DNA from: Dehalococcoidia bacterium
Lineage (GTDB): Bacteria > Chloroflexota > Dehalococcoidia > UBA2985
DNA length: 7,810 nt
Reading direction: 5' to 3'
Assembly (NCBI GenBank): GCA_030740415.1
Contig: JASLXI010000033.1
Coordinates: forward strand, 1-7,810
Positions 2,802-7,810 of this stretch are shown piece after piece (within the stretch, counting starts at the first letter, position 1; each line of letters opens with the position of its first letter). A program made the position numbers and the translations under genes. The notes under the pieces were generated by a model. It saw nothing but the letters and a program-made list of their open reading frames with translations, was not told the origin of the DNA and did no database searches.

Positions 2802-3751
2802 TGCCATACAGTCACGGCCCAGAGACCATCGCAATGAAGCCGCCCATAGACGTCCGCAGTGTCTCCAAGTGGTTCGGCAACGTTGTGGCCGTGAATGACG
2901 TTTCACTACAGGTCAACTCAGGTATCACCGGGCTCCTGGGGCCCAACGGTGCCGGGAAGACCACCCTCCTGCATATGATTACGGGACTAACAAAACCCTC
3001 CGAAGGAGAGGTAAAACTCATCGGGGAACCTGTGAGGGACAATCCCCAGCTATATCAGAGGGTCGGTTTTATGTCGGAGCACGAGTCGGTGTATGGTTTC
3101 CTAACCGGTCGAGAGTTTGTGAGCCTGGCCGCGAGACTGTACGGATTAGAGCCTCTGTCGCCTCCAGTGGACCGGGCCATAGGACTGGTGGGGCTAACGG
3201 ACGTGCAGGGCAGAACACTGTCCACTTACTCCCGAGGGATGCGGCAGCGGATGCGGTTGGCTGCAACTCTGGTCCACGATCCGGAGGTACTACTGCTGGA
3301 TGAACCTCTCAATGGCACTGACCCCCGCCAGCGCGTCGAATTCCAGAACCTTATGCGAAATCTTGCTATCGAGGGACGTACGATACTGATCTCCTCGCAC
3401 ATCTTAGAAGAGGTGGAGATGCTGGCTGGAAGTATACTGCTGATGGTCAGCGGCAAGCTGGCCGCAGCAGGAGACTTCCACGCTATCCGTGCCAAGCTAG
3501 ACGAGAGACCCTATAAGCTCCGCATCGTCGCCAGCAACCCACGTGGTATGGCTGCGGCCCTGGTTCGGTTGGACGCGGTGGATTCGGTATCCGTAGACTC
3601 CGAGGGGGCCCTGGAAGTCCTGAGCCGCAACGTATCCGCTCTCCAGCGATCAGTCCCTCACCTGGCCCAAGAGCAAGGGATACGCCTCTTGAGAGTTGAG
3701 CCTCTGGATGAGTCCCTGGAGAGCGTCTTCAGCTATTTGGTGGATCGTTGA
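2798..3751 (+). CDS. ABC-2 type transporter ATP-binding protein (second of two)
   Basis: This 317-residue nucleotide-binding subunit is a paralogue of the first ATPase; both share the run GITGLLGPNGAGK. Counting from 2798: Walker A GPNGAGKT (48-55), Q-loop position Glu94 (GFMSEH), signature YSRGM (144-148), Walker B EVLLLD with Glu169, D-loop NGTDP (172-176) and H-loop His201. All catalytic residues needed for ATP hydrolysis are present; the Q-to-E substitution is shared with the first ATPase. ATG 2798 is chosen for its Shine-Dalgarno and ATGA coupling. An internal ATG at 2834 (MKPPIDV) matches the usual family N-terminus but has no good ribosome-binding site. The stop at 3749-3751 abuts the next start with no gap. 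It probably heterodimerises with the first ATPase or serves the second permease. Confidence 0.9.
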   Translation: MMPYSHGPETIAMKPPIDVRSVSKWFGNVVAVNDVSLQVNSGITGLLGPNGAGKTTLLHMITGLTKPSEGEVKLIGEPVRDNPQLYQRVGFMSEHESVYGFLTGREFVSLAARLYGLEPLSPPVDRAIGLVGLTDVQGRTLSTYSRGMRQRMRLAATLVHDPEVLLLDEPLNGTDPRQRVEFQNLMRNLAIEGRTILISSHILEEVEMLAGSILLMVSGKLAAAGDFHAIRAKLDERPYKLRIVASNPRGMAAALVRLDAVDSVSVDSEGALEVLSRNVSALQRSVPHLAQEQGIRLLRVEPLDESLESVFSYLVDR

Positions 3752-4516
3752 ATGGGAACAATGTTCAGGATCTCCATGCGTCAGCTAGCCATCCGCTCTA
3801 AGCTCATACTCATCCTGATCCTGGCATTATTGCCGATAGGGCTGTCCGCTCTCGTCTCCGCTACTTTGAGCTATGATGTCGAAGATGCGGCCTCTAATCA
3901 TGGGTTCATCAACACCCTGCTGGATGGCCTGCTCATTGCAGGGATACTGCCTATTGTTACGATGGTGCTGGCAACGTCGTCCTTTGGCAATGAGCTGGAG
4001 GACCGTACTCTGAGCTATCTGGTATTGAAGCCAGTACCTCGGTGGCTTATCGTATTGCCAAAGCTGATGGCATCCATCGTTGTCGGCAGCATAGCCTTGA
4101 TAGTCAGTGGGGCCGTGGCAACGCTATTGGGTGGCAGCAGCATAGGTGCGGTGCTGGTGGTGCTGGACGGTAGCCTTCAGGCTACTCTGGCCGTGGGAGT
4201 GGCCGTCTTCGTTGGTGTGGTCACATATGCTGCCATCTTCACTTGGGCGGGCCTTGTGACCTCACGAGCCATCGCCTTCGCGCTCATCTACGTCTTCCTA
4301 TGGGAAGGGTTGATCAGCTCTTTTCTCGGAGGCGTCCGTTATCTCAGCGTGCGGGGCTACAGCTTGGCCATACTACACGGTTTGGACGACACGAGCTTCG
4401 AGCCTTTAAGTGAAAGGGTTATCGAGTTTCCCGCCGCGGTGGTGGGTGCAGCCGTCACGACTGCTGTGTTCTTCTGGCTGACGGTCCGCCGCCTACGCCA
4501 AATGGATGTGCCTTAG
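3752..4516 (+). CDS. ABC-2 type transporter permease (second of two)
   Basis: This 254-residue membrane protein closes the operon. Hydrophobic segments occur at about 18-40, 56-78, 105-128, 142-168, 172-192 and 227-245, the six-helix pattern of ABC-2 permeases. The cytoplasmic stretch FGNELEDRTLSYLVLKPVPR (78-97) is the characteristic coupling region of this family and aligns with the equivalent region of the first permease, so the two permeases are distant paralogues. It begins immediately after the preceding stop (TGA then ATG), so translation is coupled; a second ATG at 3761 is a possible alternative. It lacks the long extracytoplasmic loop of the first permease. No T-tract terminator is visible after the TAG at 4514-4516. 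Substrate unknown. Confidence 0.88.
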   Translation: MGTMFRISMRQLAIRSKLILILILALLPIGLSALVSATLSYDVEDAASNHGFINTLLDGLLIAGILPIVTMVLATSSFGNELEDRTLSYLVLKPVPRWLIVLPKLMASIVVGSIALIVSGAVATLLGGSSIGAVLVVLDGSLQATLAVGVAVFVGVVTYAAIFTWAGLVTSRAIAFALIYVFLWEGLISSFLGGVRYLSVRGYSLAILHGLDDTSFEPLSERVIEFPAAVVGAAVTTAVFFWLTVRRLRQMDVP

Positions 4517-4527
4517 CTCTCCCATGA

Positions 4528-4557
4528 TTGTCCATCGCTCATAGAAGCTGCTACTAT
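4528..4557 (+). promoter_or_regulatory. Candidate promoter for the Rdx-family gene
   Basis: TTGTCC (4528-4533), an 18-nt spacer and TACTAT (4552-4557) give a modest sigma70-like match, four of six at each box. The predicted start near 4564 is about 25 nt before the ATG at 4589. Read-through from the ABC operon is an alternative. Confidence 0.35.
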
Positions 4558-4622
4558 CGGGGTATTCAAGAGTTCTGTATGGATAGACATGATATCTAAG
4601 TCCCTCGTAGAGATAGAGTACT

Positions 4623-4643
4623 GCACTCAGTGTCGCTGAGTGC
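4623..4643 (+). repeat. Perfect 8-bp inverted repeat containing the in-frame TGA
   Basis: GCACTCAG (4623-4630) and CTGAGTGC (4636-4643) are exact reverse complements around a 5-nt loop, TGTCG. The hairpin covers the codons for the CxxC motif and the TGA, which lies in the 3' arm. It is upstream of and around the TGA rather than after it, so it is not placed like a bacterial SECIS element. Confidence 0.7.
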
Positions 4644-4853
4644 TTAGGGCTACGTGGGTCGCGCAGGAACTGCTAAACACCTTCCATATGGAGATTGGAG
4701 AGATCACTCTCATACCCTCCAATGACAGCATATTCGAGATACGTGCAAACGATCAACCGGCGTGGTCACTCAAGGGCAAAGAGCGGTTCCCCGAGCCAAA
4801 GGAGATCAAGCAACGTGTACGCGACGAGGTAGCTCCTGGACGGTCACTCAGCC

Positions 4854-4882
4854 ACGCCGCCAGACAGATAATCTGGCGGCGT
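4854..4882. terminator. Hairpin between convergent genes, possible bidirectional terminator
   Basis: ACGCCGCCAGA (4854-4864) and TCTGGCGGCGT (4872-4882) form a perfect 11-bp GC-rich stem with a 7-nt loop. It lies just past the amidase stop codon on the minus strand and at the expected end of the Rdx-family frame on the plus strand. Neither side has a T tract, so classic intrinsic termination is not assured; it may instead block transcription or stabilise mRNA 3' ends. Confidence 0.55.
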
Positions 4883-6294
4883 CACACCTCCAGACGGCGA
4901 AGGTGCCAGTCTGTGGACTCCTGATAGGCGTGGGCCGCGCGCAGCAGAAGGCTTTCCGAGAAGGGTTTGCCCACTAGCTGCAAACCAACGGGTAGGCCAC
5001 CCTTCGTGAACCCACAGGGCACTGAGATAGCCGGCAGTCCCACTGTGCTGAAGACGCGTGTGATACGCAATAAGGCTTCCCTGATAGGGACATCCTGCCC
5101 TTGCATCGTCGCCCGCTCCTGCCCGATCTCGGGCGCGGCAATGGCAGTGGTCGGTGTGGCCAGGAGGTCCGCATCCTCCATTGCCTTCAACAACCCTTCC
5201 TTCAGCTTGGCCCGCACCTGCTGTGCGTGGAGATACGCCTCGGCAGGGATGAACAGCCCGCTTTCGATGCGACGCCGTATCGCCGGATCGAAGTGCTGGC
5301 CCAGAGCCAGTACACGCGAGCGGTGAATGGTAGCGGCTTCCGATGTCTGCACGACGCTGCCCGCCGCGTTGATCAGACCCATGTCCGGAAAAGAGGTCTC
5401 TCGGATCAACGACCCCAACGATTCCAATTGCACCGTGGCACCTCGAAACGCTTCCTCTACCTCGGGAGCCACCACCTCCCAAATAAAGTCCTGGGGTATG
5501 CCGATCCGTATCCTCCGAATATCTCTACCCAACTCTTCTAGATAGTCCTGAGGTGCTATCTGAACAGAGTCCGGGTCTCTGGAGTCATAGCCGGCCAGCA
5601 TATTCAGGGCCAGAGCCGCGTCCCGCACGGTTCGGGTCATGGGCCCAACGTGGTCCATGGACCAGGACAACGGCGTGACGCCATACCTGCTGATGAGGCC
5701 AAAAGTTGGCTTAAGGCCAGTGATACCACACAGTGCCGCGGGCACACGCACCGACCCCCCGGTGTCCGTCCCCATGGCAATGGGGACCTGGCCACTGGCC
5801 ACCGCGGCTCCAGGGCCGCTGCTGGAACCCCCAGCCATCCGCGCCAGATCCCACGGATTGCGAGCAGGACCATAGTACCGATTAAGGCTGGTGCCATCGA
5901 AGGCGAACTCCGTCATGTGGAGCTTTCCAATGCAGTAGGCTCCAGCAACCTTCATTTGTGAGGCCACAGCCGAGTCCGCGGTGGGCACAAATTCACTGTC
6001 TATCAACGAGCCAGAGGTGGTGCGAATGTCCTTGGTCCAAAACAAGTCTTTGAGACCCACTGGAATGCCGTGAAACGGCCCCCGATAGTTGCCCCCTAGA
6101 ATCTCCTTCTGAGCTTCTCTGGCCTCCCGTAAGGCGTGCTCATCCAGTCTGGTAATAAAGGCGTTGAGTTGCGGTTCCAGGGCATCAATGCGGCATATAT
6201 AGGCCTCCGCCACCTCTACCGGAGAGATGTCCCGGCGTTGAATGTGTTGGCCCAACTGGGACACAGTAAGCTGAGTCAGGTCCTCGTTTGACAC
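4882..6294 (-). CDS. Amidase-signature family hydrolase (GatA-like)
   Basis: This 470-residue cytoplasmic enzyme belongs to the amidase-signature family, which hydrolyses amide bonds through a Lys-cis-Ser-Ser triad. The triad is visible: Lys82 in GIPVGLKD, Ser157 in the GGSSSG loop (155-160) and Ser181 in GTDTGGSVRVP (175-185). Length matches GatA and related amidases. The GatA-typical segment with a glutamine-binding Asp before the NLAGLP block is replaced by RITRVFSTVGLP (410-421), so it is probably not a tRNA-dependent glutamine amidase; the substrate is unknown. The GTG start follows the stop of the small GatC-like gene by 2 nt with no clear Shine-Dalgarno, so coupling is likely. No GatB gene is present in the window. 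The gene ends against a hairpin shared with the convergent Rdx-family frame. Confidence 0.9.
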   Translation of the reverse strand: MSNEDLTQLTVSQLGQHIQRRDISPVEVAEAYICRIDALEPQLNAFITRLDEHALREAREAQKEILGGNYRGPFHGIPVGLKDLFWTKDIRTTSGSLIDSEFVPTADSAVASQMKVAGAYCIGKLHMTEFAFDGTSLNRYYGPARNPWDLARMAGGSSSGPGAAVASGQVPIAMGTDTGGSVRVPAALCGITGLKPTFGLISRYGVTPLSWSMDHVGPMTRTVRDAALALNMLAGYDSRDPDSVQIAPQDYLEELGRDIRRIRIGIPQDFIWEVVAPEVEEAFRGATVQLESLGSLIRETSFPDMGLINAAGSVVQTSEAATIHRSRVLALGQHFDPAIRRRIESGLFIPAEAYLHAQQVRAKLKEGLLKAMEDADLLATPTTAIAAPEIGQERATMQGQDVPIREALLRITRVFSTVGLPAISVPCGFTKGGLPVGLQLVGKPFSESLLLRAAHAYQESTDWHLRRLEV

Positions 6295-6296
6295 GT

Positions 6297-6503
6297 CTAT
6301 TCTTGTGCTAGGGTATCCCCGGGAATGAAGCCACAGCTTGGCTGAATGCCCGAGGTGTCCACTTGATCGAGCAGCTTCATACGCCGAAACATGGCCTGCA
6401 CCTCTGGGAATAGCTCCTTGAGATGTACTGTGTCCATCTCAAACCCCTGCTGCTGCGCCAGGGTTATGAACACCTCGTAAGTCAGATTGGGTCTTTCAGT
6501 CAC
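6297..6503 (-). CDS. Small GatC/AtzG-like amidase partner
   Basis: This 68-residue protein (MTERPNLTYEVFITLAQQQ at the N-terminus) resembles short GatC/AtzG-type subunits, which wrap around an amidase-signature partner and stabilise it. Support comes from its size, the helical region around HLKELFPEVQAMFRRMKLLD, the C-terminal extended tail with Pro and Gly residues, and its position directly upstream of the amidase. The open frame extends to a TTG at 6530, but AGGAG (minus strand 6514 to 6510) lies 6 nt before the GTG at 6503, and that GTG begins 1 nt after the stop of the upstream gene, so 6503 is the likely start. It is shorter than typical GatC. I am confident it is coding and moderately confident in the family. 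Confidence 0.72.
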   Translation of the reverse strand: MTERPNLTYEVFITLAQQQGFEMDTVHLKELFPEVQAMFRRMKLLDQVDTSGIQPSCGFIPGDTLAQE

Positions 6504-6504
6504 G

Positions 6505-6915
6505 CTATGCTCCTGATAGAGCCTGCTCAATCCTTGGGAGGGATGAGTCCTCTATCTCCATAAAGTGCTCAAGTACCTGGCGCAAGGACCATGGGCCATT
6601 GGGCGCCCTGTCCAGGTCTTCGTCAGACAATCCAATCAGCAATCCTTCCAGCTGTCCCCTCGCCTCCTGAAGTCTCCCCAGAATAAGCTGGACCTCTGTT
6701 GTAGCAATGCCAAGGTCACGGAGTGTCTTCACCGCATGCACCGTATGCTCGACCTCGTGGTACATCAGCTGATAGATCATGGTGCGGATGGGCATCTGCC
6801 TCTGACCCCAAGGCCCTATATCTCCCATCCTGCTCTCGGGAATCTTCGCAAGCCTATCATTCAGATCGTCGTGCTTTGTCCGCATCCGCTTCAGCATATC
6901 AGCGACAGATGGCAT
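6505..6915 (-). CDS. DinB-like/DUF664-type four-helix protein
   Basis: This 136-residue protein shows the pattern of the DinB/YfiT-like superfamily: four amphipathic helices, a His-rich segment YHEVEHTVH (52-60) and a C-terminal WSLRQVLEHFMEIE (109-122). Candidate metal ligands are His53, His57 or His60 and His117. Family members are often metal-binding and some are thiol-dependent transferases, but no activity can be assigned here. The ATG at 6915 is preceded at 6 nt by GAGGTG (minus strand 6927 to 6922), a good Shine-Dalgarno. It is the first gene of the operon with the GatC-like and amidase genes; a role with the amidase is possible but not shown. Confidence 0.8.
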   Translation of the reverse strand: MPSVADMLKRMRTKHDDLNDRLAKIPESRMGDIGPWGQRQMPIRTMIYQLMYHEVEHTVHAVKTLRDLGIATTEVQLILGRLQEARGQLEGLLIGLSDEDLDRAPNGPWSLRQVLEHFMEIEDSSLPRIEQALSGA

Positions 6916-6972
6916 AAGTTACACCTCAATTGATTTTCAGGAAGGCGTGGAGTTCACGGGGACATCGCGCCC

Positions 6973-7077: not shown

Positions 7078-7084
7078 GAGGTGA
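7078..7084 (+). promoter_or_regulatory. Shine-Dalgarno pointing to an ACG codon
   Basis: GAGGTGA at 7078-7084 is a strong ribosome-binding motif. It is about 30 nt before the ATG at 7115, too far to serve it. Six nt after GAGG is ACG (7088-7090), in frame with the rhodanese, giving TNSYARPDMLVESDWL, which looks like the usual family N-terminus. The site suggests that translation starts, or once started, at 7088. Confidence 0.5.
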
Positions 7085-7114
7085 ACCACGACCAACAGCT
7101 ACGCCCGCCCCGAC

Positions 7115-7810
7115 ATGCTGGTAGAGTCCGACTGGCTTGAAGCCCATCTGAACGACCCCGACCTGCACATAGTGGACTGCGACCAGTACGATGGGTATCG
7201 CCGCGCCCACATCCCAAACGCAGTCGGCATACGCGAGCATCATTACATCAAGCATCCTGATTTCCCTAAAGACCCCATCGGCCATCCCCTTGTCGCTCCC
7301 CCTGAACAAGTTGCCCGACTCATGGAGAGCATGGGGATTGGCAATGACGTCACGGTAATAACCTACGACGGATCTGGAGGCAACTCCGCCGCTCGCATTT
7401 GGTGGGTCCTCAATTACTATGGCCACGATAAGGTAAGGGTGCTCAACGGCGGCTGGGCCAAGTGGCTTGACGAAGGCCGGCCAATAACCACCGATGTCCC
7501 CAGAACAACGCCGGCTACCTTCACCTCACGTGAGCGCGAGGACTTGGTGTGTTTAATGGACTATGGTGTTTCTCAGATAGGACAGCCAGATACCATTTTC
7601 CTGGACGTGCGCTCCGACGGAGAGTGGATGGGCACCAACGATCGCGGGAATAAGAGGGCAGGACATATTCCGGGAGCCATCCACCTGGAGTGGCTCAACT
7701 TCGTGACGGCGGACAGCCACCGGACCTTCAAGCCGGCCGGCGAGCTACGAAGCCTGCTGGAAGAGAACGGCATCACGCCAGAGAAACAAGTGGTGACCTA
7801 TTGACAGAGC
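7115..7810 (+). CDS. Thiosulfate sulfurtransferase (rhodanese) with TGA at the catalytic Cys; runs off the edge
   Basis: This is a two-domain TST/rhodanese, a family of about 280 residues that transfers sulfane sulfur from thiosulfate or mercaptopyruvate to an acceptor through a persulfide on one Cys of the C-terminal domain. Counting from ATG 7115, the inactive N-terminal domain spans about 1-130 (DGYRRAHIPNAVGI, LNGGWAKWLDEGRP) with Asp-Gly where Cys would be. The C-terminal domain follows (IFLDVRSDGEW, GHIPGAIHLEW, FKPAGELRSLLEENGITPEK). It reads VVTY then TGA (7802-7804), then Gln and Ser. Family members read VVTYCQ[G/S]G here, so the TGA replaces the active-site Cys. This fits a selenocysteine codon, a nonsense mutation or a sequence error. 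The SECIS, if any, and the last ~50 residues lie beyond the window. The start is uncertain: conserved residues YARPD precede the ATG, and a Shine-Dalgarno favours ACG 7088. No other Cys besides one in the N-terminal IVDCDQ and one at VCLMD is evident. Confidence 0.82.

What the first reader, a model, noticed from the sequence alone, without database searches (positions are those of the whole stretch)
7790..7810. TGA exactly at the catalytic cysteine of a rhodanese: candidate selenoprotein
The frame reads V-V-T-Y-TGA-Q-S, and TST-family proteins have Cys at that position followed by Gln and Gly/Ser. All 229 preceding codons look like a functional protein with no other lesion. From family knowledge, rhodaneses use a nucleophilic Cys here, and Cys-to-Sec replacement occurs at exactly such positions; rhodanese-like selenoproteins have, as I recall, been reported in metagenomic surveys. 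An ordinary annotation would call this a truncated 229-residue protein lacking its active site. The window ends 6 nt later, so the decisive SECIS region is unseen.
Basis: partly seen in the sequence, partly recalled or inferred. Interest (0 to 1): 0.85.

Follow-up and report, generated by a model that had tools for sequence, protein, structure and literature searches.

The report
Sulfur-transfer enzyme with active-site selenocysteine
The gene at the contig's end is most likely not broken: its UGA sits where a sulfur-transfer enzyme has its active-site cysteine, and many relatives carry the same UGA followed by the RNA hairpin that makes bacteria insert selenocysteine there, so databases cut these proteins short.

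Summary
Confirmed. Frame 7115-7804 (+) is a two-domain thiosulfate sulfurtransferase (rhodanese, COG2897/SseA type) whose TGA (7802-7804) lies at the active-site Cys. The window ends 6 nt later, so the tests were run on relatives. Of 76 related loci, 48 have TGA at this codon, 23 have TGC/TGT and 5 are unclear. In all 48 the frame goes on: 41-47 codons to a stop in 47, 38 to the contig end in one. All 48 carry the hairpin CGUGC-GKC-GCACG, loop 17 nt after the UGA, fitting the published bacterial SECIS model; 0 of 23 Cys loci carry it, although 14 encode the identical eight residues. In 32 TGA genomes tested, 31 have selA, 30 selB and 29 a strong tRNA-Sec. The nearest relative (L001, 82% identical, same gene order) has selA, selB, tRNA-Sec and selD. 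Sec in COG2897 rhodaneses was predicted in 2005 and 2008, so this is a new member of a known predicted selenoprotein family. Added here: its breadth in Chloroflexota and Binatota, and that 118 of the 119 best other database hits end at this codon. The hairpin and sel genes of this contig's own organism were not seen.

The parts
7115..7801 (+). First 229 codons of the sulfurtransferase: N-terminal rhodanese domain and most of the C-terminal one, up to the residue before the active-site position
7802..7804 (+). In-frame TGA read as selenocysteine, at the active-site Cys of the family
7805..7810 (+). First two codons after the TGA (Gln, Ser). In relatives the hairpin starts beyond this, so it is not in the window
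7085..7114 (+). In-frame stretch TTTNSYARPD matching the first ten residues of relatives, but without their start codon

Best explanation
The TGA at 7802-7804 is a selenocysteine codon. The gene encodes a two-domain thiosulfate/mercaptopyruvate-type sulfurtransferase of about 270-285 residues with Sec as catalytic nucleophile (loop U-Q-x-G-I/V-R in relatives). A SECIS hairpin just beyond the contig's end would recruit SelB with Sec-tRNA, so the ribosome inserts Sec and reads on for some 41-47 codons. The enzyme would take a sulfane sulfur from a donor (thiosulfate, 3-mercaptopyruvate or a persulfide) as a selenenyl-sulfide on Sec and hand it to an acceptor. Shown in relatives: homology, position, conserved TGA, coding constraint after it, hairpin, Sec machinery. 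Inferred: Sec insertion in this organism, the catalytic step with Sec, and the donor, acceptor and cell role (the sulfurtransferase chemistry about 0.7 likely).
For: Position on the aligned Cys of solved sulfurtransferases. TGA in 48 of 76 loci and Cys codons in 23. Frame open 41-47 codons after TGA in 47 of 48 and to the contig end in L037, with rough pN/pS 0.098 in codons after the hairpin. Hairpin at one fixed offset in 48 of 48 TGA loci and 0 of 23 Cys loci; the four codons without any synonymous variation among 113 measured columns are the hairpin's. selA 31, selB 30, strong tRNA-Sec 29 of 32 TGA genomes, against 9, 9 and 8 of 18 Cys genomes; selD over cut-off in 10 of 10 TGA genomes tested and 0 of 5 Cys genomes without selA. 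Window syntenic with L001 and grouped with L001 and L002 among TGA forms.
Against: The window does not contain the hairpin, and no genome is held for it. The usual start codon is missing, and the second codon after TGA is Ser, where the 48 TGA loci have Gly (47) or Ala (1), so this copy could carry errors or decay. Covariation in the stem is weak: one pair changes on both sides, in 4 of 34 sequences, and 5 of 7 pairs never vary. Fold energies are not all exceptional, and one Cys control folds about as well. G020 has none of the three sel features, G023 lacks selB, G012 and G031 a strong tRNA-Sec. Nothing was measured on protein.
Confidence: 0.93

Rival explanations
1. The family codon is a real Sec codon, but the copy in this window is decaying or carries assembly errors near the contig end and does not make the full protein.
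For: Start codon of relatives absent at 7085-7087; Ser instead of Gly/Ala right after U-Q; the contig ends there.
Against: 229 codons without another stop or shift, 82% identical to L001; an in-frame ATG at 7115, the start predicted also in P0011 and P0081 or within a residue of it.
Confidence: 0.05
2. The TGA is an ordinary nonsense mutation or sequencing error that inactivates a Cys-type rhodanese.
For: A stop at the active site would inactivate the enzyme; no selenium was measured.
Against: Same codon TGA in 48 of 76 loci, hairpin present only with TGA, selection on residues after it.
Confidence: 0.015
3. The short product ending at TGA is the real protein, a one-and-a-half-domain rhodanese without active-site Cys.
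For: It is how 118 of 119 best database hits are predicted.
Against: The 41-47 codons after TGA keep the family's C-terminal sequence under selection and the hairpin is frozen. Gene callers stop at TGA by rule.
Confidence: 0.01
4. TGA is reassigned as a whole in this organism (for example to Trp or Gly).
For: Only the in-frame TGA.
Against: Four other predicted genes of the window end in TGA; 8 of 47 complete TGA-type relatives end this very gene in TGA; relatives have Cys at the codon, not Trp or Gly.
Confidence: 0.005

Closest known systems
Rhodanese-related sulfurtransferase selenoprotein, COG2897/SseA (Sargasso Sea 2005, PMC1088965; GOS 2008, PMC2398784; MQG53192.1 in PMC9312934; form 4, UxxG, MCY3690685.1 in PMC13188914)
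   Same: Same COG type, Sec with UxxG loop as in relatives of the window, predicted SECIS after the UGA
   Different: Reported from a few ocean sequences in the passages seen (3 in 2005; 8 plus 1 in 2008); here 48 loci in named genomes, largely Chloroflexota and Binatota. I could not compare the listed accessions letter by letter.
Cys-type thiosulfate sulfurtransferases (1UAR, 1E0C, 3HZU)
   Same: Two rhodanese domains, aligned end to end with the relative P0122 (E 3.8e-48 to 7.6e-41)
   Different: Cys instead of Sec; loop C-R/Q instead of U-Q-G-G-I-R
Other rhodanese selenoproteins (NF041203 rhodanese_LYCAU, CxU; TsoB, NF045694)
   Same: Rhodanese domain with Sec
   Different: Different size and motif; NF041203 scores 36.4 bits against a cut-off of 115, on the N-terminal domain, and NF045694 is not among the matches

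Membership tests
Tandem-domain sulfurtransferase (COG2897 type) | Two rhodanese domains in one chain | tested here: met
   Two Pfam stretches in the window protein and in P0122; end-to-end alignment of P0122 to 1UAR
Tandem-domain sulfurtransferase (COG2897 type) | Nucleophilic Cys (or Sec) in the C-terminal domain loop | tested here: met
   TGA at the aligned Cys in relatives and in the window; nucleophile role recalled from family knowledge
Tandem-domain sulfurtransferase (COG2897 type) | Sulfurtransferase activity | not testable with these tools
   Needs an enzyme assay
Bacterial selenoprotein gene | In-frame TGA at a Cys position with open frame after it | tested here: met
   TGA in the window; continuation seen in 48 relatives, not in the window
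Bacterial selenoprotein gene | SECIS model: loop 3-9 nt with G in the first two places, stem 4-16 bp, spacing 16-37 nt, MFE at most -7.5 (PMC13188914, passage) | tested here: inconclusive
   Met in relatives: loop 3 nt GGC/GUC, stem 6-7 bp, spacing 17 nt, MFE -8.4 to -25.0 for 45 nt in 48 loci. In the window the region is missing.
Bacterial selenoprotein gene | selA, selB, tRNA-Sec and selD in the genome | tested here: inconclusive
   No genome of the window; all four in the nearest relative G001
Bacterial selenoprotein gene | Selenium in the protein | not testable with these tools
   Needs 75Se labelling or mass spectrometry

The most novel reading that the evidence does not exclude
The Sec rhodanese is the ordinary form in much of the SAR202/Dehalococcoidia Chloroflexota and in Binatota and handles selenium as well as sulfur, for example by carrying selenium as a perselenide towards SelD (which itself has an internal TGA in all ten TGA genomes tested), so that selenium supply feeds its own carrier.
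Probability: 0.08. Interest if true: 0.75.

Novelty: new member of a known kind. Interest (0 to 1): 0.42.

Why it matters
It indicates that a rhodanese selenoprotein listed in surveys from a handful of ocean sequences is widespread in Chloroflexota and Binatota, and that databases cut it off just before its active site. A family model with Sec at this codon would correct such records. Natural Sec and Cys forms among relatives offer a clean test of what selenium gives a sulfurtransferase.

Tried and rejected
Own-genome search: none held. Rfam and tRNA scans of the window: nothing. Viral contigs: 91 pattern matches, no relative. NCBIfam: 8 models match P0122, none reaches its cut-off. Neighbouring genes as a guide to function: recurring neighbours follow kinship; the widest is an arylsulfotransferase-like gene in 20 of 48 TGA loci and 0 of 23 Cys loci. 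Direction of Sec/Cys change: at least 3 changes on the tree, 2 forced by starred branches; quick method, root unknown, long branches flagged, so gain and loss cannot be told apart. Literature on this clade: listings showed none, within open-licence PMC papers; two searches returned 0 papers, and searches matched thousands of which 15 each were listed. No structure prediction was run. One search translated the wrong bases of L078 and was not used.

Full report
What is there. The last gene of the window, 7115-7804 (+), has 229 codons before TGA 7802-7804, followed only by CAG AGC. It matches Pfam Rhodanese with two stretches and aligns with two-domain sulfurtransferases such as 1UAR, stopping at the residue before their Cys. 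With the full-length nearest relative (L001; P0122, 285 residues, TGA read as Cys) the TGA falls on the aligned Cys of 1UAR, 1E0C and 3HZU. That this Cys is the nucleophile is family knowledge, recalled.

Not an isolated stop. The protein search gave 894 proteins, 120 listed. Apart from the window's own entry, 118 of 119 listed end in the same Tyr; the exception is P0061. The DNA of these proteins was not seen as such. Of 76 related loci from named genome records, 48 have TGA at this codon, 23 TGC or TGT, and 5 are unclear: L006, L055, L058, L060, L076. L006 has TGA and the hairpin but its frame is shifted upstream. In 47 of the 48 the frame runs 41-47 codons to a stop (TAA 20, TAG 19, TGA 8); in L037 it runs 38 codons to the contig end. 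Most read UQGGIRAAHG...NYDGSMGEWAN...TPL. After the hairpin, codons with one difference are mostly synonymous (2520 against 776; rough pN/pS 0.098; 307 non-independent pairs under 30% divergence), so the stretch after TGA is under selection as protein.

The hairpin. All 48 TGA loci carry CGTGCG[GT]CGCACG at one offset; 0 of 23 Cys loci do. Fourteen Cys loci encode the same eight residues QGGIRAAH as 41 of the TGA loci, yet spell R-A-A-H in ten ways, none of them the hairpin's; the 48 TGA loci use one spelling (43) or its Ser variant (5). In 46 distinct TGA genes 113 columns could be measured: the four without any synonymous variation are the four hairpin codons, and the next three lowest are codons +4, +1 and +9. 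CGT, fixed there, is 13% of Arg codons in these genes. RNAalifold finds six pairs around a 3-nt loop. Covariation is weak: one pair changes on both sides, in 4 of 34 sequences; 318 of 500 shuffles reach that number of pairs and 493 of 500 the number of pair types, while 0 of 500 reach the percentage paired and the covariation score; 5 of 7 pairs never vary. Single folds: z -1.9 to -4.2 in four TGA loci, but -2.2 in one Cys control and +1.4 in another. The case therefore rests on codon freezing and on absence from Cys forms, not on energy. The published model (loop 3-9 nt, G in the first two places, stem 4-16 bp, spacing 16-37 nt, MFE at most -7.5; PMC13188914, passages) is met: 3 nt, G first, 6-7 bp, 17 nt, -8.4 to -25.0.

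The machinery. In 50 genomes (32 TGA, 18 Cys): selA over cut-off 31 of 32 against 9 of 18; selB 30 of 32 against 9 of 18; tRNA-Sec at 62 bits or more 29 of 32 against 8 of 18. Fisher p 1.6e-4, 6.8e-4 and 6.6e-4, not corrected for kinship. Misses among TGA genomes: G020 all three, G023 selB, G012 and G031 tRNA-Sec; the genomes are mostly MAGs or single-cell genomes and can be incomplete. selD is over cut-off in 10 of 10 TGA genomes tested, each with one internal TGA, and in 0 of 5 Cys genomes without selA. Half of the Cys genomes also have sel genes, so the machinery does not predict the Sec form.

The window's own place. The tree groups the window with L001 (starred), then L002, among TGA forms. 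L001 (Chloroflexi MAG casp150-mb.79) matches the window in the same order at 80-82% over 4193-6497, 6547-6929 and 7093-7807, the last block running through TGA CAG. Its genome has selA, selB, tRNA-Sec with anticodon TCA, and selD. This is as close as the tools come to extending the contig.

Doubts about this copy. Where relatives have their start codon the window reads ACC, so translation would start at ATG 7115 or the assembly is wrong. The last codon gives Ser where the 48 TGA loci have Gly (47) or Ala (1).

How it probably works. From knowledge of rhodaneses (recalled): a donor leaves a sulfane sulfur on the active Cys, which hands it to an acceptor. With Sec the intermediate would be a selenenyl-sulfide; a lower pKa and better leaving group could speed either half-reaction. 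Donor, acceptor and role are unknown. The window's other genes (DinB-like, amidase, ABC transporter, Vut_1 transporter) and the neighbours in relatives do not tell.

What is known. The Sargasso Sea survey lists this COG2897 family with 3 Sec sequences and a predicted SECIS (PMC1088965, passages). The GOS survey lists 8 under cd01449 and 1 under COG2897 (PMC2398784, passages). Two reviews list it with one accession each (PMC9312934 and PMC13188914, passages). 'Chloroflex' does not occur in the main text of the four papers in which I searched for it. NCBIfam has no model over cut-off for it. So the kind is known; added are its breadth (Chloroflexota and Binatota; also MAGs labelled Gemmatimonadetes and Deltaproteobacteria), the frozen hairpin, the co-occurrence and the systematic truncation.

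Verdict.

Noticed in passing
window 7085-7114: Relatives begin here with ATG (some GTG/TTG by my choice of start); the window reads ACC, after the in-frame TGA 7082-7084.
   Followed up: partly
L052:716-2191: A second Sec-type rhodanese copy with TGA and the same hairpin (at 2066), upstream of the first (at 3682), with U-Q-A-G-L-R instead of U-Q-G-G-I-R.
   Followed up: partly
L006:3001-3760: A Tectomicrobia MAG has the TGA and the hairpin but its frame is shifted shortly upstream; error or decay.
   Followed up: partly
L010, L014, L015, L017, L018, L020, L021, L023-L027, L029-L032, L040, L052, L057, L065: An arylsulfotransferase-like gene near the Sec rhodanese in 20 of 48 TGA loci and in 0 of 23 Cys loci; in 19 it lies downstream on the same strand. 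May be kinship only.
   Followed up: partly
genomes G001-G004, G007, G009, G014, G017, G027, G032: selD itself has one internal TGA in all ten TGA genomes tested, as expected of a Sec-containing SelD.
   Followed up: no
L033: A TGA form placed within a group of Cys forms (support 86, not starred), a possible change of state between close relatives.
   Followed up: no
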